A DNA stretch of 39,858 nucleotides from a virus. The DNA lies in the IMG/VR virus record IMGVR_UViG_3300020205_002120, positions 1 to 39,858 of that record; one strand, written 5' to 3'. Below, one piece after another: positions 8,070 through 33,345 of the stretch (position 1 is its first letter; each line of letters opens with the position of its first letter). Both the position numbers and the translations under genes were made by a program. The notes under the pieces were generated by a model. It saw only the letters and a list, made by a program, of their open reading frames with translations, was not told the DNA's origin and did no database searches.

Positions 8070-8401
8070 AGTGCAAATACCATTAAAATTGTTGGTTTTA
8101 CCCAGAAAAAGCCTGCTATTCCTGTAGTATCATTTTGTTTATATCTTATTATAGGGTATCCTACTGGAGAAATATATGGGGGCGTTACATCAGTTGGACC
8201 AAATAGTTTGTATTGATGATCTCCTGTTTGTATAGGTATAACATATATATTACGACCAATTAAGTCTGTGTAAGGTACGTTACGAATTATAGTATCTCCC
8301 AAAACAGGGAGAGTCAAGTATTCAACAAAGACTCCTCCTTGACTACTAGTATCATAGGTTATACTCCCCGCACTATCTTTTAATTGCATTCCGTATGCCA
8401 T
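8066..8401 (-). CDS. small tail protein, paralogue of the adhesin N-terminus (111 aa)
   Basis: A 111-residue protein starting MAYGMQLKDSAGSITYDTSS. This matches in pattern the start of the downstream giant adhesin (M(A/S)YG(M/F)(Q/K)(L/F) followed by D(S/N)..I..D), so the two probably share an anchoring fold. The C-terminus is hydrophobic (FFWVKPTILMVFAL). It sits 8 bp downstream of the central fibre gene and overlaps the adhesin start by 4 bp (ATGA), so translation is coupled. Proteins of this type often follow the tail-tip gene in siphophages, but no biochemical role is assigned. Probably a tail-tip or fibre accessory subunit. Confidence 0.65.
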   Translation of the reverse strand: MAYGMQLKDSAGSITYDTSSQGGVFVEYLTLPVLGDTIIRNVPYTDLIGRNIYVIPIQTGDHQYKLFGPTDVTPPYISPVGYPIIRYKQNDTTGIAGFFWVKPTILMVFAL

Positions 8402-8409
8402 ATGTATCC

Positions 8410-11400
8410 TTATCCGAGTAAATTACCTATTAACACACGTACTACTCCGCCTGCATCAAATACTTTAATAGTATTATTTGACATTTGTATTCTTTCACCG
8501 CTTCTAGCAGTTCCATTACTATTATACGGGCCAATAACTAATGAATTTGCATCAATTGAACCAGTAGTAATCTTACCACCTAAAATTTGTGTAGTGTTAT
8601 TATTAATATCTGTGGCTGCACCGCCTGTACTTACTTTGCCATTTAATCCACTGGTTAAATCAGTTGTATTTGCCTTAGCGCTTAAGCTTGAATTTACATC
8701 AGTAGTATTTGCTTTAGCGCTTAGGTCAGTAAAAGTTACTAAACCATCAAAAGTAATTGAAGTTATAACACTTCCCAACTCTACTGATACAGGAGTTACA
8801 CCATAAGCAGATTCAGTAACATTATATCTAACAGCATATGCTTTTTGACCAGCACTAGGTGTAAATAAAGAATGAGACCAGTCTGCACCAGGAGTACTAA
8901 ATGTACCTGTAGTCCAGTTCCAAGAACTAGCAGTAGGACTTGGGGCTGGTGGCGGACTTGTAGCACTAATTTGATAGTATAAAAATCCACTAGCATTTCT
9001 AGGCCCTTTTTGACCTTCTGCTCCTCTTATACGTGCCCAAGTATATAAACTTTTTACACTGCTGTCATCAGGATTATTATCTGTATAAGTACCAATAAAA
9101 TCACCTGGTACCTCACCATTAGCACCAGTAAAGCTTTGTGCAACACCATCTACAACATCATCACTATATTTAATGTGTAGGTATGCAGTTAAACCATCAT
9201 TATAGTCTTTTCCAATTCCTTTTTCAGGAATATATTTTGCAGCAGCACCATTGGTAACAGTACCGTTAGCAGCTATAGTATTTACTCTAATAAACACGTC
9301 GCCAAGTACATAATCATCGTGCCAAGTATTAGCATTTTGCGAGTACTGTACTTTAATACTGCTACCATCATTGTAGTCGGTACCTTTAATAGGCGTTTTA
9401 CCGTCTTTATATTTGGTAAAAGAAACCTTTTTAGTGATTACTAAACCACCTACTGTAGCTGTAAATGTTGCTTCTGCGTAATTTGCATTAAGACTATCAA
9501 TGGTAATAACTCCAGAATTTTGATCAATTCTATAAGTAGCGGCACTACCACCAGTATAACTAACTTTTGCAAATTGAACTAACGCAGGATTAGAGTTTAA
9601 CAGTGTATCTCCGCGAGCAACAAAAAATGTTGTTGTAAAAGGAAATTGGCCTGATTCTGGTACACCAAGTTGGTCGCATATAATTGGCTTAGTATCATTA
9701 TAAATAACTGCAGTAAGCCCATCACTGCCTAAAATTTGACTAACAGTACCTTGTTCATCAAAACTACTTAAAGCATTTTCACTTACAATAACTTTTACTA
9801 CTCTGGTCTCGCCAGCTGGAAAAGGATATAGTCTAAAAGTATTTCCTGTTGGTAAGCCTATAGAGGCGGTAGCCCCCTCTCCAGTTATTTGCACGTATCC
9901 TGTACCTGGATTAACATACCAACTATAATTTGCAGCACCAGTATAGTTACTAGCAGTTGCTGTAAATGTCATATAAGATGGAGTTACAGTAGGCGGAGTA
10001 GTTTTATTATCTGTTAAAAACGCTAGTGCGTCATAAGTTAAATTAACGCTTCTAGCAGTATTACCGCGTACACCTTGTTTAGACTTTGAAAAACTTTGGC
10101 GTACTACAAAATCTTGATGTGTTGAATCAGTTATTTGAACACGTACTGTATAATCAATATAAGCAGCATCTGCTGTCATAGCAGAATGTTGATCGTATTC
10201 TATATATGTAGGTTGTATGTTAGCAGAGCCATCACATACAATATTAACGCCAACAGTAGGTTCTATTACTCTCCAAGTATCTGCAGCAAAACCATCTGTA
10301 CCAACATTATCTGTAAGTAAAGTCTGTGCACCTTTTTTAACTGTAATAGTAGTACCACTACCAACATAATTTAGCGAATCTGTTCCGCCATTTTCGTCTG
10401 CTGTAATAGTATGTGTTTGATTACTTAATTCAACTTGTATTTGAGTGGAACCGTCACATATTCTATAAATAGAAATAGTATCAAAAGTTGTACCTACAGT
10501 AGCAGTTACTTCTACATAGCCTAAATCAACATTATAATCTAATGGATTACTGAATTGATCGTTAGTAATAGTAATACTTTTAGTGTCAGCAGATACAGTA
10601 TAACCAACTTGCTGATTACCGTACTGTGCTCCCAACTCTACACCTGCGCGACTAAACGCTCTAGTTCCCCAAGATACAAGTCCTGTTAAATTTTTAAGTG
10701 TAGCAGTAATTGTAGTACTTGCTACGGTGCTTCGTTTTTGGTTAACATCTTTATATATAAATTCTTTGATAGGTGTAGTTAGTTGAACAGTAGGTGCTGT
10801 TTGACCTGCTATGCCTTTATATACATTGAATACTTTTTCAACAACTAAACCTTTGTAAGTAGCTCTAAATATTACACTACCGCTATTGCCAGTCATAGCA
10901 CTAGCGCTGTATGCACCAGTATTTTGATTAATTGTTGCAACTAATCCACCAATAGCAGAACCTGGTACCACACTATAAAAAGGCCCGTTAGTAAAGTCAT
11001 TTTTACCTGTAACGTCTTCGCTAAAACTATATAATTTAAATATACCTTGTGTTACAGCCCAGTTACCTCCACTACCATCACTGGCGGTAGACAGGGCTGC
11101 TGGATCATTAGTTAAATATCCATATATACTAGTATTTTCATCATAAGTCATTGCACTATATTGCTTAGATATAGTAAACTCAGCTGGATCAATACTACTA
11201 ATTAAAGCATATTTTACATAGTATACTTTATTTGTTTCTAAACCTGTAATAGTAGTAGATAAACTATTAGTTTCAGAGAATAACGTACCCTGACCTGCTA
11301 TTCGCGGGTCAAAGGGCGTTGTTGTACTGTACCAAACTTTTACAGCAATTAAGTCATCGCGTACATCAGTAGTTCTAGATAAGTCGTACGGTGTTGGTAT

Positions 11401-25586: not shown

Positions 25587-27545
25587 TTAGGTAGCTGTAT
25601 ATTTGTGTGCTGTAACTGCGTTACCGTAGTTACTTGTAACACGTGTCATACCTGTACGTAAGCTAGCGACCATCACACGGCGTTGTGTTTCCACTAACTC
25701 TTGTGTGTCGATACGCAGACCACGCTGATTACCAACGATAAAGTTGCCTGGGTTCAAGCAAATTGCACCTGCAACGCCAGTACCTGGTGAAGCAAACTCA
25801 CCGGAGACCAACACTGGGCTTCCACCGATTTGACCGATTTGACCAGTCAACAATGTAGCTTGTGTACCAACTTGATTCATTGTCTGGAACACTGTATCTT
25901 CAAGCAATTGATAGTATGTATCGGTATTAACGATATAAACCACTTCTGCAGGATCGAGACCCCAAGTGCCAAGACCTTGACGTAATGCGCGCATTTTAGC
26001 AACAGTCATACCAGCAACAACAGTATTACCTGTAGCAGTGGTGTTAGTAGCCCAAGCTGCTAAACCTTTGACAGGCACTGTAGCATCGCCGGCACCTAAC
26101 AAGAAAGCTGCATCAACAGCACGTGCAACACGACGAATCATGCCATCACGGATGATTGGCATAAGAGCCAATAATGCATCTTCTTCTTCTTCGTAAGCTG
26201 TGTACTCATTAGTAGCAACTTTATATGCATTCAAAGTAATTTCTTTGATAGCGTGTGTAGCATTTCCACCAGCAGAAGCACCAGCAGCACCAAGTGTGCC
26301 TGGAACAGCGCCAAAGTTGCTGTTAGCAACCCAAGTAGCAGTACCTGCTTCTGGATTAACTGGAATAGTCATTACGTTAGTTTGCATAGCAATGTTGCGG
26401 AAGATAGGTGCAACAACTAAACGACGACGAACTTCAGCTTCTAAATTCAAAGAAACTTCTGTTTCCCAGGTAGCAGAAGGAACGTGAGCACCATACTTTT
26501 CAGCATAAGCACGACCTGTACGTGTACCTTCGATAGATTTACCAGCCATTTTAGCCAATAAAACTGCTTTCTCTTTATCAGCATAAGTCATTTCACCAGA
26601 CTTGGTGTCTGTAAAAGTCATACGTGATTTTTGAATAGCTTCTAATTCAGAGGCTTTCTCTTTCAAAACAGACTCTAAACCAGCTAAAGCTGATTTGCTC
26701 TGCTCTGTTTGAGCTTCTAAACGTTTTTCAACTTCGGCCAACAAACGTTCAGCGCCTGTGTCACCAGTTGAGATTTGAGCAGCAACGGCTGCCTTGACTT
26801 TAGCATCGAAGTCTTGCTGAGCTTTATCAGCAGCGGCTTTTTGATCAGCAGCTTTAGTTTGAGCTTCGATAACAGCTTTAGCTGTAGATTCTGCGGCTTT
26901 AGTAGCAGCGTCTGCTAGCAATTGTTCTAATTGTTTTGGATCCATGATGTTCCATTCCTTTTTGATTTCGCTTTTTGCTTCCGTTGTGGATTCTAGCCCT
27001 TTAGCTGAGTCGCCTTTGGGTGCAAATTGCAGTTTGAAAGATTTAAATTCTTCGGCATCGTCAAATGCTTTAGAAAGACTAAATAGAGTATTTTGATTTG
27101 CTGGCACTGACACTACTGAAATTTCATGTAGTTCCAATTCTTTTACTACGAACAGCTCTGCAGCTGCATTGTATTCCGCGTCTATAATTCGGAATCCGAT
27201 ACTAAATGCGGTTAGTACACCGTCTTTTACAAGATTGTACACTTCTTCTGCTGCTGTGGAGATTCTGGCTTTAATCCATAATCCTTTGGCATCAATTTTG
27301 TGTTCTACCATTCGGCCAACTGGCTCACTATGATCGTGATACGCTAAAATTACTGGATTTTTCAAGTAATTTGCAATACCCTTTTCCCAGACATTTGTTG
27401 GCACTACATCTCCTTGACGATCTGTATCATTGGTACTTGCGTAGCCCATGATATAAATACTACCTTCTGGATCTGTACTTGCTGGTAGAGCATCACTCTT
27501 TATAAACGAGCTATTTAAGTATAGCACTTTATTTTTATCTACCAT
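25587..27545 (-). CDS. prohead protease - major capsid protein fusion (652 aa)
   Basis: One continuous frame encodes two HK97-type functions. Residues 1-~165 are a U35-type prohead protease: AYHDHSEPVGR (catalytic His70) and VLTAFSIGFR (Ser115), followed by LELHEISVVSVPANQ. Residues ~205-300 are Ala/Gln/Lys-rich coiled coil, like the HK97 delta/scaffold domain. Residues ~320-652 are the HK97-fold capsid (YAEKYGAHVPSATWETEVSL; RNIAMQTNVMTIPVNPEAGT). An internal in-frame ATG at 26945 (Met201) has AAGGA 10 bp upstream, so free capsid precursor (452 aa) could be made too. The GC content appears higher than neighbours, as often seen for highly expressed capsid genes. A terminator follows. Confidence 0.9.
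   Translation of the reverse strand: MVDKNKVLYLNSSFIKSDALPASTDPEGSIYIMGYASTNDTDRQGDVVPTNVWEKGIANYLKNPVILAYHDHSEPVGRMVEHKIDAKGLWIKARISTAAEEVYNLVKDGVLTAFSIGFRIIDAEYNAAAELFVVKELELHEISVVSVPANQNTLFSLSKAFDDAEEFKSFKLQFAPKGDSAKGLESTTEAKSEIKKEWNIMDPKQLEQLLADAATKAAESTAKAVIEAQTKAADQKAAADKAQQDFDAKVKAAVAAQISTGDTGAERLLAEVEKRLEAQTEQSKSALAGLESVLKEKASELEAIQKSRMTFTDTKSGEMTYADKEKAVLLAKMAGKSIEGTRTGRAYAEKYGAHVPSATWETEVSLNLEAEVRRRLVVAPIFRNIAMQTNVMTIPVNPEAGTATWVANSNFGAVPGTLGAAGASAGGNATHAIKEITLNAYKVATNEYTAYEEEEDALLALMPIIRDGMIRRVARAVDAAFLLGAGDATVPVKGLAAWATNTTATGNTVVAGMTVAKMRALRQGLGTWGLDPAEVVYIVNTDTYYQLLEDTVFQTMNQVGTQATLLTGQIGQIGGSPVLVSGEFASPGTGVAGAICLNPGNFIVGNQRGLRIDTQELVETQRRVMVASLRTGMTRVTSNYGNAVTAHKYTAT
26943..26960 (-). 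promoter_or_regulatory. candidate internal ribosome-binding site and start for free capsid protein
   Basis: AAGGA at 26960-26956 precedes an in-frame ATG at 26945-26943 by 10 nt, starting MDPKQLEQLLADAATKAAES. This is exactly the junction between the protease domain and the coiled coil, the natural capsid-precursor N-terminus. Most genes in this arm use the same AAGGA site. Confidence 0.55.
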
Positions 27546-29195: not shown

Positions 29196-29636
29196 TTATT
29201 TTAATGTGCTACGCAGCATCCACGAATGCTTTTTGTGTGCATCTTGGCGATCAGCCAAAAAGTTTGATAACCCGTGATCACCCATTTGTTCGGCTAAAAC
29301 AAATCCTTGACGGAATAATTCAGCCAAATTGTCACTATCTACCAAAAGCTCTTGAGCCATTGTAGCAGGTTGTTGTACTTGGTCTTGACCCATAATAATA
29401 CTAAGTTCATTTAAAATTCCTAAAGAAGCAGGTGTATATGATTTAAGGGCACGAAGCTGTTCAGCAAATATATCTACCGATTCAAAAACTTCGTTATAGA
29501 TGCGCTCAAATAATAGATGAAATTCGTAAAAGTTACTACCTTCAACATTCCAGTGAAAGTTAGCAGCTTTTAGATAGAACGCAAACTCTGAAGCAAACAA
29601 GGTTTGCATATTCTTTATGTACTGATCTTGATCCAT
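29196..29636 (-). CDS. dps: Dps-like ferritin (DNA protection during starvation) (146 aa)
   Basis: A 146-residue four-helix protein of the Dps family. The ferroxidase ligands have the exact Dps spacing: His28 (NFHWNV), His40 (FHLLFE), Asp55 and Glu59 (SVDIFAEQL), i.e. +12, +15, +4 as in bacterial Dps; Glu44 takes the place of the usual second-sphere Asp. Dps dodecamers oxidise ferrous iron with peroxide and can coat DNA. It has its own perfect sigma70 promoter (29684-29712) and begins the operon containing HNH, portal and capsid, so it is expressed with late genes. It is unusual cargo here; it might protect phage DNA or host from oxidative damage. Family call is strong, role is inference. Confidence 0.9.
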   Translation of the reverse strand: MDQDQYIKNMQTLFASEFAFYLKAANFHWNVEGSNFYEFHLLFERIYNEVFESVDIFAEQLRALKSYTPASLGILNELSIIMGQDQVQQPATMAQELLVDSDNLAELFRQGFVLAEQMGDHGLSNFLADRQDAHKKHSWMLRSTLK

Positions 29637-29731: not shown

Positions 29732-31018
29732 TTAAATGGTATAAGTGTATAGTGCGTACCTAACGGCATCAGCCATATGACTATATTTATCGTGCATAGG
29801 GCGTTCGCGTTGTAGTCCTTCACGCTGATCCCAGCGATACTGATCGAACATAGCACGTACATTAGTACAGTGTGGAGCGACCTTTAGTCTACCTTGCTGT
29901 ACTAAGGTCTGCACATAAGCAATACCAGGTAACACATCTTTTTTGGCTTTAGTAGTTGAAATGTTATATAAGTAAGCAAGGTCACTAGCAAACTGTGCTG
30001 CAGCCGAATCGATAAATACTACTTCAACTCCATGACGCTCATTTAGTTCTGCAAAATGTGCAGCGTGCTCGGCAGTAGTTTTTTCTGCCTTTAAATATTC
30101 GTCTACTACCCAGAAACAGTCACTATTCCAATCATATACAATTACACAAAATGCAGTCTCGTCTCTATATCCTGGATCGCAGCCAGCAATAGCTTCGCCT
30201 TTTAAGTCTTCAGGAGGTTCCATTACATCAGTATCTGCAAGTGAGTATATTTGACCCTCAAATGTAGTAAACGATGCTAAATATTCTTGTTCAAACTCTG
30301 CGCGACTCATCGAACGCTTAGCTTCTGCAACATCCGATTCAGCCATTCTAGTATTTTCAGTGTAGTCGGCCTGAAGTGAGATCCATTCTGGAAAGTTTGG
30401 GTCAAATCCACGATTCCAAAACTGTGAAAACCAGTTATTACGACCACGTGGGGTCGATATAAAAATAGCTTTAGCCTGTGGCTTGTCTAATGTAGGTCTG
30501 AGTGCTACATTAAAGGCAGCCTCACCACCTTCACCGAGCGCAGCTTCGTCGAAGATGATTAGATCATAAGATCTACCTACAGTCGAGTCTACTGTACTCA
30601 ACGATCCCATGCGAATGGTACTACCATTTTCCAACTCAATAATCTTATCTTTTAAGTTGTCTCTAGCAACTTCCAAATCAAAGTGTTTTATCAATTTACG
30701 TTGTAGCTCGAATGAAATGCTGCTGAGATTGTAGTTTGGGGAAATGATTAGAACATTCGAACCAGGTACAAGTGTTACTAACTGACCAATAATGTTAGCT
30801 ATATAGGTTTTGCCCAGTCTGCGTGCAAGTGCAGCGCAAATAAAGCGGTACTTGGGATCATTAACTGCATTAATTAGTGCAACCTGTGGACGATTGATTG
30901 TATCGTATACATCAAGCAGTTTTAAGTAATTTGTGATAGGTAGCTTAATAAATCTCTGTTGAGGGTCTATTTCAGTAATAGCATCTACATTGATATCTGG
31001 TCTAGAAACTAACAGCAT
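29732..31018 (-). CDS. terL: terminase large subunit (428 aa)
   Basis: The packaging motor and nuclease. Walker A is the degenerate ARRLGKT (65-71), Walker B LIIFDEA with Asp157/Glu158, then a coupling motif ISTPRGRNNWFSQFW. The C-terminal RNase H-like nuclease has GCDPGYRDETAF (first acidic residue), VFIDSAAAQFASDLAY and a final HDKYSHMADAVRYALYTYT. Length is normal for the Terminase_6/HK97-like group. It starts on the last base of the SGNH hydrolase stop. Genes for the small subunit and large subunit are separated by three cargo genes, unlike the usual adjacent pair. Confidence 0.95.
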   Translation of the reverse strand: MLLVSRPDINVDAITEIDPQQRFIKLPITNYLKLLDVYDTINRPQVALINAVNDPKYRFICAALARRLGKTYIANIIGQLVTLVPGSNVLIISPNYNLSSISFELQRKLIKHFDLEVARDNLKDKIIELENGSTIRMGSLSTVDSTVGRSYDLIIFDEAALGEGGEAAFNVALRPTLDKPQAKAIFISTPRGRNNWFSQFWNRGFDPNFPEWISLQADYTENTRMAESDVAEAKRSMSRAEFEQEYLASFTTFEGQIYSLADTDVMEPPEDLKGEAIAGCDPGYRDETAFCVIVYDWNSDCFWVVDEYLKAEKTTAEHAAHFAELNERHGVEVVFIDSAAAQFASDLAYLYNISTTKAKKDVLPGIAYVQTLVQQGRLKVAPHCTNVRAMFDQYRWDQREGLQRERPMHDKYSHMADAVRYALYTYTI

Positions 31019-31410
31019 TATTTGGTGGCCTTTGCTAACTCACGATAGCCTTGAGTAGTTGGATGTATTTTATCACTACTTGGTTGAAATTCTAAGGCTG
31101 TGTCGCCATATTCTTTAGCTAGTGTTCTTACTAACTCTGAAATACTAGTTTTATTTTGTGGAACTATCCAAAATACACGCTGTGCTTGTACTTTGCTACG
31201 CATTGTTTCTAGTTCACGTTTTGTTCTTACGCCAGTGTGGTCGTTAGCACCCAAACTAATAATGGCTGTACTTGCTAATAAATCTTTTGTACCGTATATC
31301 TTATTCCATTGCCAGCTATTAATACCGCCCTTGCTATACGAAACACATTCTTGCCTTTGTAGTTGTGTACCTACAGCAATAGAGTCGCCTAGTATAATAC
31401 ATTCTAACAT
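31018..31410 (-). CDS. SGNH/GDSL-type hydrolase (130 aa)
   Basis: A compact 130-residue SGNH hydrolase. Block I is LGDSIAVG with nucleophile Ser10; GGIN (28-31) supplies the block II Gly; block III is GAND (54-57) with Asn56; block V is DKIHP with Asp113 and His116. These enzymes hydrolyse esters, often deacetylating glycans or cleaving acyl chains. No signal peptide is visible, so it acts in the cytoplasm or in the particle. It starts immediately after the GT2 gene and ends in the terL start. It may modify an O-acetyl or acyl group on a surface glycan; substrate is inference. Confidence 0.85.
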   Translation of the reverse strand: MLECIILGDSIAVGTQLQRQECVSYSKGGINSWQWNKIYGTKDLLASTAIISLGANDHTGVRTKRELETMRSKVQAQRVFWIVPQNKTSISELVRTLAKEYGDTALEFQPSSDKIHPTTQGYRELAKATK

Positions 31411-32121
31411 TTAATTCCAATACTTACTTGAGTCTAAGTTATCCCAGTAGGATCTATTATTACGGTTTAAAAAGTTTTTGATTAAGTACTTGGTCATGCC
31501 AAAATATCCCATCTTGCGAAATCTACGTGAGTCTTGTCCGAAGTAGTGTTTTACAAGTTTAAACTTGTGAGTACTATACTTGCGTGATAAGAAGTAATCT
31601 TCGGATGTTGCAAACTGTTCTGGAAACCCGCCTAGTTCTACAAACTTGCTAGTACGTGTTAACATAAATGCACCAACTGCAAATGGTGAAAAGTACTTTA
31701 GCGTATTATTTATCACATTAAAGATAGTAAAACCAATTTGTGCACGTATGTCAGCATCATAGCATTTTGCATTTAAACCAATTAAATCCAAATTTTCTGT
31801 TTCTATTGTGCTAACTGCTTCATAAATAACCGTGGGTTTGAAAAAGCGTACATCAGCATCGATAAATAGTATATAAGGTGTGGTAGCTAAACGGGCTCCA
31901 CGATTCTTAGCAATGGAAACAGGTCCGCCTTCAATGACTTCAATGTTAAGCTGTGGTCTATAGAGGTTTATAATCTCACGAGTCTTGTCTGTAGAACAAT
32001 CAGCAATAATAATCTTAGTAAGGCCAACGCCTTGAGTTACTAAGTTATCTAGTAAGTGTCCTATATAGTCTTGCTCATTTTTTGACGGTATTACAATTGT
32101 TATCTTGTTGCTTAGGTTCAT
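31411..32121 (-). CDS. family 2 glycosyltransferase (236 aa)
   Basis: A GT-A fold, GT2-family enzyme. ITIVIPSKNEQDYIGHLLDN opens the nucleotide-binding domain, followed by IIIADCSTDKT, SIAKNRGARLATTPYILF and the metal-binding DxD (IDADVRF, about residue 88). A SEDYFLSRKY motif near residue 180 could supply the acidic catalytic residue. A hydrophobic patch (IFNVINNTLKYFSPFAVGAF) may be membrane-associated. It transfers a sugar from a nucleotide-sugar, most likely to a host envelope lipid or glycan. The start lies 47 bp inside the metallophosphoesterase gene in another frame. Family is firm, acceptor is unknown. Confidence 0.88.
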   Translation of the reverse strand: MNLSNKITIVIPSKNEQDYIGHLLDNLVTQGVGLTKIIIADCSTDKTREIINLYRPQLNIEVIEGGPVSIAKNRGARLATTPYILFIDADVRFFKPTVIYEAVSTIETENLDLIGLNAKCYDADIRAQIGFTIFNVINNTLKYFSPFAVGAFMLTRTSKFVELGGFPEQFATSEDYFLSRKYSTHKFKLVKHYFGQDSRRFRKMGYFGMTKYLIKNFLNRNNRSYWDNLDSSKYWN

Positions 32122-32872
32122 CTTTTTCCTTTAACCAAGTTACGATTTCCCAACGGCCCGAATGGTGTTCTACAAGTGCTGTACACGACTCAACCCAGTC
32201 ACCATCGTTCATATAAGTAACACCGTTGATCTCTTTAATTTCTGCGTGATGTATGTGTCCACATATCACACCATCAAAGCCGCGCTTCTTACAATAGTTG
32301 GCTAGATTCTCTTCAAACTTAAATATAAAGTCTACAGCTTTTTTAACTCGGTACTTAAGATACTTGCTAAGACTAAAGTACCCAAAACCCATGCGGTGAC
32401 GTAACCAATTATATTTTGAATTGAGCCCAAGAATAAAGTCATAGGCTTTATCTCCTAAAAATGCTATCCATGGTGCTAAACGGGTGATGCCGTCGAATAA
32501 GTCGCCATGTGTTACTAAGTAGTGCTTACCATCAGCACCTATGTGTTCGATTTGATTGTGTATTTCTACTAAGCCGAATGAAAAGCCATAAGGTATCATA
32601 GGACGTAGAAACTCATCATGATTGCCTGCTATGTAAACCACCCTGGTGCCACGTTTAGCGTGGCCTAGTACTCGTCTGACTACGCTAGTATGCGACTGCT
32701 TCCAACGCCATTTATTTTGCTGTATTCGCCAAGCATCAATAATGTCACCAACTAAGTAAAGTGTTTCGCAGCTATTATGTTTTAAGAAATTATTTAGTTT
32801 ATTAGCTTGTGAGTCTGCAGTACCTAGGTGTACGTCGCTAACGAAGATTGAGCGATACGTAGTAGGCAACAT
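32075..32872 (-). CDS. LpxH-like metallophosphoesterase (265 aa)
   Basis: A calcineurin-type phosphoesterase with all metal motifs: DVHLG (Asp13, His15), GDIID (Asp43), GNHDE (83-87), THGD (121-124) and GHIHH (205-209). The sequence pattern GVICGHIHHAEI and NDGDWVESCTALVEHH is that of bacterial UDP-2,3-diacylglucosamine diphosphatase-like proteins, which act on lipid A precursors. Length 265 is normal. Its start shares bases with the small-terminase stop (TAATG) and its 3' end overlaps the GT2 gene by 47 bp. Together with GT2 and SGNH genes it suggests envelope-lipid modification, perhaps superinfection exclusion; that role is inference. A nucleic-acid end-processing role is less likely. Confidence 0.85.
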   Translation of the reverse strand: MLPTTYRSIFVSDVHLGTADSQANKLNNFLKHNSCETLYLVGDIIDAWRIQQNKWRWKQSHTSVVRRVLGHAKRGTRVVYIAGNHDEFLRPMIPYGFSFGLVEIHNQIEHIGADGKHYLVTHGDLFDGITRLAPWIAFLGDKAYDFILGLNSKYNWLRHRMGFGYFSLSKYLKYRVKKAVDFIFKFEENLANYCKKRGFDGVICGHIHHAEIKEINGVTYMNDGDWVESCTALVEHHSGRWEIVTWLKEKDEPKQQDNNCNTVKK

Positions 32873-33345
32873 TAGACGCCTTCTCCGCTAATTAGTTGTT
32901 GTACTAGCTTACCATACTTGCTGCCTTCAAGGCCTTCATTGATTTGAACGTTAACTTGCTTTTGTGGTCCGGTTTGAGTTTTGGCTTTTTCTAATTGAAT
33001 TTCTCGGTCTAGTAAATCCATAGACATTTTGTGAGACATTTGAAGTAGTTCGGCAATGTCTTTTGTAGAACCCATTTGAGATTCTTCTAACTCATGAAAT
33101 TTTTGTTTAATGAGGGCATCCATTGCTTTTCTCATTAAGAAACGATTATTGTATCCACTATCAAAGAATACTGAGTCAATATAACCTTTTACTTCTCGTT
33201 TAGCTAAAATACTGGTGACAACTTCTGGGTCTATCCCCAGTTCATCTGCAACTTGTCTTGCATCATTCAGTTGTAGGTATGCGTTGGCTACTTCCAGTGC
33301 CTCGGGGCTAATACGTACAGTTTCGGCTGGTAGGTGTGTAGTCAT
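32872..33345 (-). CDS. terS: terminase small subunit (157 aa)
   Basis: A 157-residue protein with an N-terminal helix-turn-helix (VANAYLQLNDARQVADELGI then DPEVVTSILAKREVKGYIDS), a central helical oligomerisation region and a Gln/Lys-rich tail (KAKTQTGPQKQVNVQINEGL). That is the layout of phage small terminases that bind the packaging site. It is the first gene of the minus-strand arm and ends at the metallophosphoesterase start. AAGGA lies 7 bp before the ATG. The likely promoter is at 33365-33393. Confidence 0.85.
   Translation of the reverse strand: MTTHLPAETVRISPEALEVANAYLQLNDARQVADELGIDPEVVTSILAKREVKGYIDSVFFDSGYNNRFLMRKAMDALIKQKFHELEESQMGSTKDIAELLQMSHKMSMDLLDREIQLEKAKTQTGPQKQVNVQINEGLEGSKYGKLVQQLISGEGV

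What the first reader, a model, noticed from the sequence alone, without database searches (positions are those of the whole stretch)
31018..32872. Envelope-modification island inside the terminase operon
LpxH-like metallophosphoesterase, GT2 glycosyltransferase and SGNH hydrolase are packed between terS and terL with overlapping stops and starts. Such genes act on lipid A precursors, sugar transfer and acyl/ester removal. Together they could remodel lipopolysaccharide late in infection and block re-adsorption or aid release. Splitting terS from terL by three metabolic genes is unusual.
Basis: partly seen in the sequence, partly recalled or inferred. Interest (0 to 1): 0.72.

Follow-up and report, generated by a model that had tools for sequence, protein, structure and literature searches.

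The report
Phage lipid-swapping genes, not LPS genes
This phage, like hundreds of others in the same virus collection, carries a gene pair that most likely strips the phosphate head group from the host's membrane phospholipids and puts a sugar in its place, a phosphorus-saving trick known from bacteria but hidden in phages under the wrong name (LpxH, an enzyme of lipopolysaccharide synthesis).

Summary
The three genes are real, intact and at the stated coordinates, but the lipopolysaccharide reading is probably wrong and the trio is not a unit. The metallophosphoesterase (MPE) is not LpxH by any test run: 22% partial identity to E. coli LpxH, and 46 and 34 bits against LpxH cut-offs of 134 and 190. 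It is 47.5-55% identical to the PlcP-type phospholipases C of S. meliloti and P. aeruginosa and has their motifs. Relatives were found in at least 598 IMG/VR contigs; the 80 kept are 83-92% identical, on contigs up to 525 kb, while the best bacterial relative found is 61%. In 79 of 79 testable MPE-seeded loci the next gene is a glycosyltransferase: GT2 (62) or an Agt-like GT4 (17). PstS often lies beside the pair. Pho boxes precede 16/17 PstS and 26/90 MPE genes against 7/1354 other phage genes (p=2e-44). The best reading is a phage PlcP-glycosyltransferase cassette converting phospholipid to glycolipid. In the window's lineage the terS-terL junction is a cargo site: empty in 18 of 64 relatives, with SGNH moving separately from MPE-GT. 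The window copy has no Pho box. No activity has been measured; the sugar acceptor is inferred.

The parts
32872..33345 (-). terS, terminase small subunit; upstream border of the cargo site
   Evidence: phrog_3802 E 1.3e-35
32075..32872 (-). PlcP-type metallophosphoesterase (265 aa), predicted phospholipase C releasing diacylglycerol
   Evidence: 55% to P. aeruginosa PlcP-locus protein, 47.5% to S. meliloti PlcP, 22% partial to E. coli LpxH; tree; motifs SDVHLG, GDIID, GNHDEFLR, HGDLFD, GHIHH, GDWVESCTA
31411..32121 (-). GT2 glycosyltransferase (236 aa), predicted to glycosylate the diacylglycerol made by PlcP
   Evidence: Glycos_transf_2 E 1.8e-17; DxD (D88, D90) and SED motifs invariant in 41 phage copies; GT-A fold, pLDDT 87; directly follows MPE in 62/79 testable loci, the rest having an Agt-like GT4 there
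31018..31410 (-). small SGNH hydrolase or acyltransferase (130 aa); separate cargo gene, OatA-like fold
   Evidence: GDS, GxND, DxxHP invariant; OatA catalytic domain TM 0.74; occurs without MPE-GT in 12 relatives
29732..31018 (-). terL, terminase large subunit; downstream border of the cargo site
   Evidence: Terminase_6N E 3e-15, phrog_2 E 1.6e-46

Best explanation
The MPE-GT pair is a phage-borne lipid-remodelling cassette of the plcP-glycosyltransferase kind. The MPE (PlcP) cleaves the phosphorylated head group from host phospholipids (probably PE or PG), leaving diacylglycerol. The GT then adds a sugar to the diacylglycerol to give a glycolipid, so that the membrane stays intact while phosphorus is freed for phage DNA synthesis. 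In many phages the pair is Pho-box controlled and sits with PstS, which would raise phosphate uptake. In this phage it was inserted into the terS-terL cargo site and is read with the packaging genes. The SGNH gene is an independent cargo gene, perhaps an O-acyl transferase or esterase of cell-wall or surface sugar. Shown here: family, gene order, spread, Pho boxes, purifying selection. Inferred: enzyme activities, the lipid acceptor of the GT2, the benefit to the phage.
For: MPE groups with PlcP and apart from LpxH at 100/100 support. It is 47.5% identical to S. meliloti PlcP and 55% to the P. aeruginosa protein in the PlcP-Agt1 arrangement. MPE is followed by a glycosyltransferase in 79/79 testable MPE-seeded loci. 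In 17 of these it is a GT4 that is 37-43% identical to the P. aeruginosa Agt1-locus protein, matching the plcP-agt order seen in up to 49 of 80 bacterial loci; Agt1 of that species was shown to make MGDG in E. coli (PMC8528852). PstS passes NCBI's equivalog cut-off (392 vs 339 bits) and neighbours the pair in many loci. Pho boxes: 42/107 PstS and MPE promoters vs 7/1354 others, p=2e-44, no permuted pattern reaching 42. A phage desaturase and a Gram-negative porin also neighbour the pair. The nearest bacterial GT2s (31% identical) sit next to a VTT/DedA-LssY gene, a family tied to lipid translocation (the lipid link is own knowledge). PlcP-GT operons are the known bacterial phosphorus-starvation route to glycolipids (PMC4796936).
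Against: No activity was measured. The window copy and all 12 terS-type cassettes lack a Pho box, so phosphate control is not shown for this phage. The GT2 acceptor is not given by sequence or fold: nearest folds are TarS/TarP, PcManGT and WrtF. The degenerate Pho-box pattern was fixed after a first scan with the strict consensus, although that scan already showed the effect (MPE 21%, PstS 29%, others 1.2%). The point where the LpxH outgroup joins is not resolved (AU p 0.44 for LpxH plus viral rows together). In a count limited to loci with 3 kb on both sides, PstS lay near the pair in only 6 of 45, so PstS is a frequent but not constant companion.
Confidence: 0.77

Rival explanations
1. LPS remodelling: MPE is an LpxH, GT2 an LPS sugar transferase and SGNH a deacylase, and together they alter LPS late in infection.
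For: Distant LpxH matches (46 bits, E 3.6e-12); PDB profile hits are LpxH (E 6e-11), but no PlcP structure was found in that library.
Against: Far below the LpxH equivalog cut-offs (134 and 190 bits). Separate from LpxH in the trees. GNHD in place of the GNRD seen in E. coli LpxH. SGNH is not linked to the pair. Pho boxes and PstS have no place in this model.
Confidence: 0.05
2. PlcP activity is real, but its use is to weaken or mark the membrane (lysis timing, exclusion of other phages, altered adsorption) rather than to save phosphorus.
For: In the window the pair lies in the packaging operon without a Pho box. Papers link lipid renovation to phage attachment and predation trade-offs (titles and abstracts).
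Against: Pho boxes in 34 of 77 cassettes of other phages and PstS linkage. A glycosyltransferase that could consume diacylglycerol is always present, which argues against diacylglycerol build-up as the aim.
Confidence: 0.11
3. MPE is PlcP, but the GT2 glycosylates something else (surface glycan, teichoic-like polymer, protein).
For: Nearest folds act on polymer or glycan acceptors (TarS, TarP, WrtF). GT2 is unrelated to Agt (GT4).
Against: GT2 and the Agt-like GT4 occupy the same slot and exclude each other (62 vs 17). The nearest bacterial GT2s neighbour a VTT-LssY gene.
Confidence: 0.12
4. The enzymes act on nucleic acids or nucleotides (nuclease plus base glucosylation).
For: Weak PHROG matches of the MPE to DNA repair exonuclease (E 4.7e-7).
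Against: The stronger and full-length relation is to PlcP; GT2 matched no DNA glucosyltransferase in the searches run.
Confidence: 0.02

Closest known systems
Bacterial PlcP (phospholipase C of the phosphate-starvation response; S. meliloti, Phaeobacter MED193, P. aeruginosa PA3219)
   Same: 47.5-55% identity to the S. meliloti and P. aeruginosa proteins, shared motifs, glycosyltransferase next door, Pho boxes in many phage copies
   Different: Phage-borne; forms its own clade; best bacterial relative found is 61%; in the window it lies in the packaging operon without a Pho box; activity not tested
plcP-agt operon (Agt, GT4, makes MGDG and GADG)
   Same: Gene order; 17 phage loci carry a GT4 37-43% identical to the P. 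aeruginosa Agt1-locus protein
   Different: The window and most phage loci use a GT2 of another family, which was not found beside plcP in the 80 bacterial loci examined
LpxH (UDP-2,3-diacylglucosamine pyrophosphatase)
   Same: Calcineurin-like metallophosphoesterase superfamily; database name
   Different: 22% partial identity; family cut-offs missed by a wide margin; GNHDEFLR and GDWVESCTA motifs instead of the E. coli LpxH ones
Phage PstS phosphate AMG
   Same: PstS neighbours the cassette and has Pho boxes; known phage AMG kind (own knowledge)
   Different: PlcP-GT targets membrane phosphorus; I found no description of it as a phage AMG in the library searched
Pelagibacter phage Mosig EXVC030M locus
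   Same: MPE 48% identical, next to a phosphate ABC transporter gene
   Different: No adjacent glycosyltransferase annotated; product named UDP-2,3-diacylglucosamine hydrolase

Membership tests
PlcP | Strong full-length sequence relation to characterised PlcP (published search used E<1e-40) | tested here: met
   S. meliloti ortholog E 5e-69, 47.5%; P. aeruginosa locus protein 55%. Orthology to the characterised genes is inferred from neighbourhood
PlcP | Groups with PlcP apart from LpxH | tested here: met
   Split 100/100 and SH-aLRT 100; exact root inside PlcP unresolved (AU 0.44)
PlcP | Metal-site and family motifs | tested here: met
   SD-HLG, GDI-D, GNHDE, HGD, GHIHH, GDWVES shared with both PlcP
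PlcP | Operon with lipid glycosyltransferase | tested here: met
   79/79 phage loci have a glycosyltransferase next; GT4 matches in 49/80 bacterial loci
PlcP | Pho regulation | tested here: inconclusive
   Pho box in 34/77 cassettes of other phages, absent in the window and 12/12 terS-type cassettes
PlcP | Phospholipase C activity on PE, PC or PG | not testable with these tools
   Needs an enzyme assay or complementation
LpxH | Passes LpxH equivalog models | tested here: not met
   46 of 134 bits and 33.9 of 190 bits
LpxH | Groups with LpxH | tested here: not met
   only 22% over 122 residues to E. coli LpxH
Agt (GT4) | GT4 family | tested here: not met
   Window GT is GT2; the works-like claim rests on the shared slot
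SGNH hydrolase | Blocks I, III and V (Ser, Asn, Asp-His) and fold | tested here: met
   Invariant residues, OatA-like fold; Pfam cut-off not reached

The most novel reading that the evidence does not exclude
A virus-specific PlcP-glycosyltransferase cassette, separate from any bacterial copy found and swapped among unrelated phages of very different genome size, rewrites host membranes from phospholipid to glycolipid during infection. It would be a common phage route to phosphorus, with a GT2 diacylglycerol glycosyltransferase of a family not described in this role.
Probability: 0.6. Interest if true: 0.85.

Novelty: new variant of a known kind. Interest (0 to 1): 0.74.

Why it matters
Membrane lipid is a large phosphorus pool, and known phage phosphorus genes concern uptake and regulation (own knowledge). 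It would also correct a mislabel (LpxH / KEGG K03269, LPS synthesis) that may affect AMG surveys; a Lake Baikal viral metatranscriptome already lists 'lpxH' together with a desaturase (PMC9611531). It is directly testable in E. coli and in plcP mutants.

Tried and rejected
LpxH membership: tested and rejected. The trio as a unit: rejected by gene content of 64 relatives. BtaA (betaine lipid) link: the family search in four genomes gave none. AU test of the LpxH plus virus grouping: uninformative because of the very long outgroup branch. Pho box in the window: none. GT2 acceptor from fold search: generic GT-A hits only. PADLOC: no defence match of note. Literature: several sets of terms on phage PlcP or phage LpxH-like AMGs found no description of the cassette; subscription papers and preprints are not in the library. 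The paper on the metal need of PlcP (PMC6052262) was not held. S. meliloti PlcP was identified by its place beside a LuxR regulator and an AHL synthase gene; that plcP is the neighbour of sinR/sinI there is my own knowledge. PHROG scans of large neighbouring ORFs gave few lineage markers, so the host phage types were not named.

Full report
OBSERVATION. The window is a 39,858-base virus record. On the minus strand, terS, MPE, GT2, SGNH and terL follow each other with one-base or 47-base overlaps or none. The genes are under purifying selection (dN/dS about 0.05-0.11).

WHAT THE MPE IS. NCBI's LpxH models give 46 and 34 bits where 134 and 190 are needed. BLASTP to E. coli LpxH gives 22% over 122 residues, to S. 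meliloti PlcP 47.5% over 240, and to the P. aeruginosa PlcP-locus protein 55% over 233. The S. meliloti gene (L240) was taken as PlcP because it lies beside LuxR and AHL-synthase genes (that this is the SMc00171 neighbourhood is own knowledge). The P. aeruginosa gene (L241) is a plasmid-borne copy with the same order, PlcP then family-1 GT, that a paper reports for PA3219-PA3218. In two trees the viral MPEs form one clade (SH-aLRT 98; bootstrap/SH-aLRT 100/99) within PlcP-type proteins, beside Hyphomonadaceae-type sequences, with LpxH split off at 100/100. An AU test could not fix where LpxH joins, so membership rests on identity, the split, the motifs, operon partner and promoter, not on the root.

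SPREAD. The best bacterial relatives found are 61% identical, and only 5 of 50,697 deposited phage records have one, at 27-48%. 150 of 399 sampled Pseudomonadota genomes carry a relative at E<=1e-20. The cassette is therefore not a fresh host gene as far as these collections show. Two relatives of the window (L176, L192) share 87% terS and 89-90% terL but only 73-74% MPE, while phages sharing no detected terminase have MPE up to 92% identical: the gene is exchanged between phages.

PARTNERS. Of 80 MPE-seeded loci, 79 can be tested; all 79 have a glycosyltransferase next, 62 GT2 and 17 GT4. The GT4 is 37-43% identical to the P. aeruginosa Agt1-locus protein and has matches in 49 of 80 bacterial loci, those listed lying just after the MPE gene. 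Published work shows Agt1 of that species makes MGDG in E. coli (PMC8528852) and that PlcP-GT operons serve phosphorus-starvation lipid remodelling (PMC4796936). PstS lies beside the pair in many loci and passes its equivalog cut-off. A fatty-acid desaturase and a Gram-negative porin occur nearby.

PHO BOXES. A strict-consensus scan gave scores of 11 or more of 14 for 21% of MPE and 29% of PstS genes that have an upstream gap, against 1.2% of other such genes. A degenerate pattern fixed afterwards hit 16/17 PstS, 26/90 MPE and 7/1354 others (p=2e-44); six of the seven others are one Ala/Val-rich ORF family (c55) found next to the pair. None of 200 column-permuted patterns reached the observed 42, though one reached 34. 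By cassette: 34 of 77 in other phages, 0 of 12 in the terS type to which the window belongs.

THE GT2. Its DxD and SED motif residues are invariant in 41 phage copies and its model has a GT-A fold (pLDDT 87), but fold search does not name the acceptor. Nine of 399 Pseudomonadota genomes have a relative at E<=1e-15; in the five loci read it is followed by a VTT/DedA-LssY gene, and one is 31% identical to the window's GT. That the viral GT2 glycosylates diacylglycerol is inferred from sharing its slot with the Agt-like GT4.

THE SGNH AND THE CARGO SITE. Of 64 terL relatives with both ends in view, 18 have terS and terL abutting or nearly so, 10 have MPE+GT, 12 have SGNH, none has both; the window and L001 do have both. 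Other cargo there: class II aldolase, IscU/IscA, c56, c29. The SGNH model is nearest to the catalytic domain of OatA, a peptidoglycan O-acetyltransferase (TM 0.74). It is best seen as separate cargo.

VERDICT. Best reading: phage PlcP-glycosyltransferase lipid-remodelling cassette (0.77). The LPS reading keeps 0.05. What remains open is activity, the acceptor, and why the window copy is tied to packaging genes rather than to phosphate control.

Noticed in passing
L026, L040, L047, L052, L061, L069 (cluster c55): An Ala/Val/Glu-rich ORF near the cassette has its own Pho box in six distinct loci; function unknown.
   Followed up: partly
L210:2160-3785 and 8287-9783: Two MPE-GT pairs on one phage contig, the second with MPE only about 50% identical and grouping with the Pelagibacter phage Mosig copy.
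   Followed up: partly
window 25587-27545 (-): Prohead protease (Peptidase_S78) and major capsid (Phage_capsid) domains in one 652-aa protein.
   Followed up: no
window 29196-29636 (-): Dps/ferritin-like gene directly after terL, present in only some relatives.
   Followed up: no
L005, L169, L171, L295, L309, L317: IscU-like and IscA-like iron-sulphur genes as cargo between terS and terL.
   Followed up: no
L173:5528-8324: terS-GT2-terL with no MPE: a relative with the GT without its partner.
   Followed up: no
PMC10734472 (paper, not a locus): A paper on HIMB59 phosphate islands names an 'LpxH' beside an 'RfaG' glycosyltransferase; this may be the same mislabel of a plcP-agt pair.
   Followed up: no
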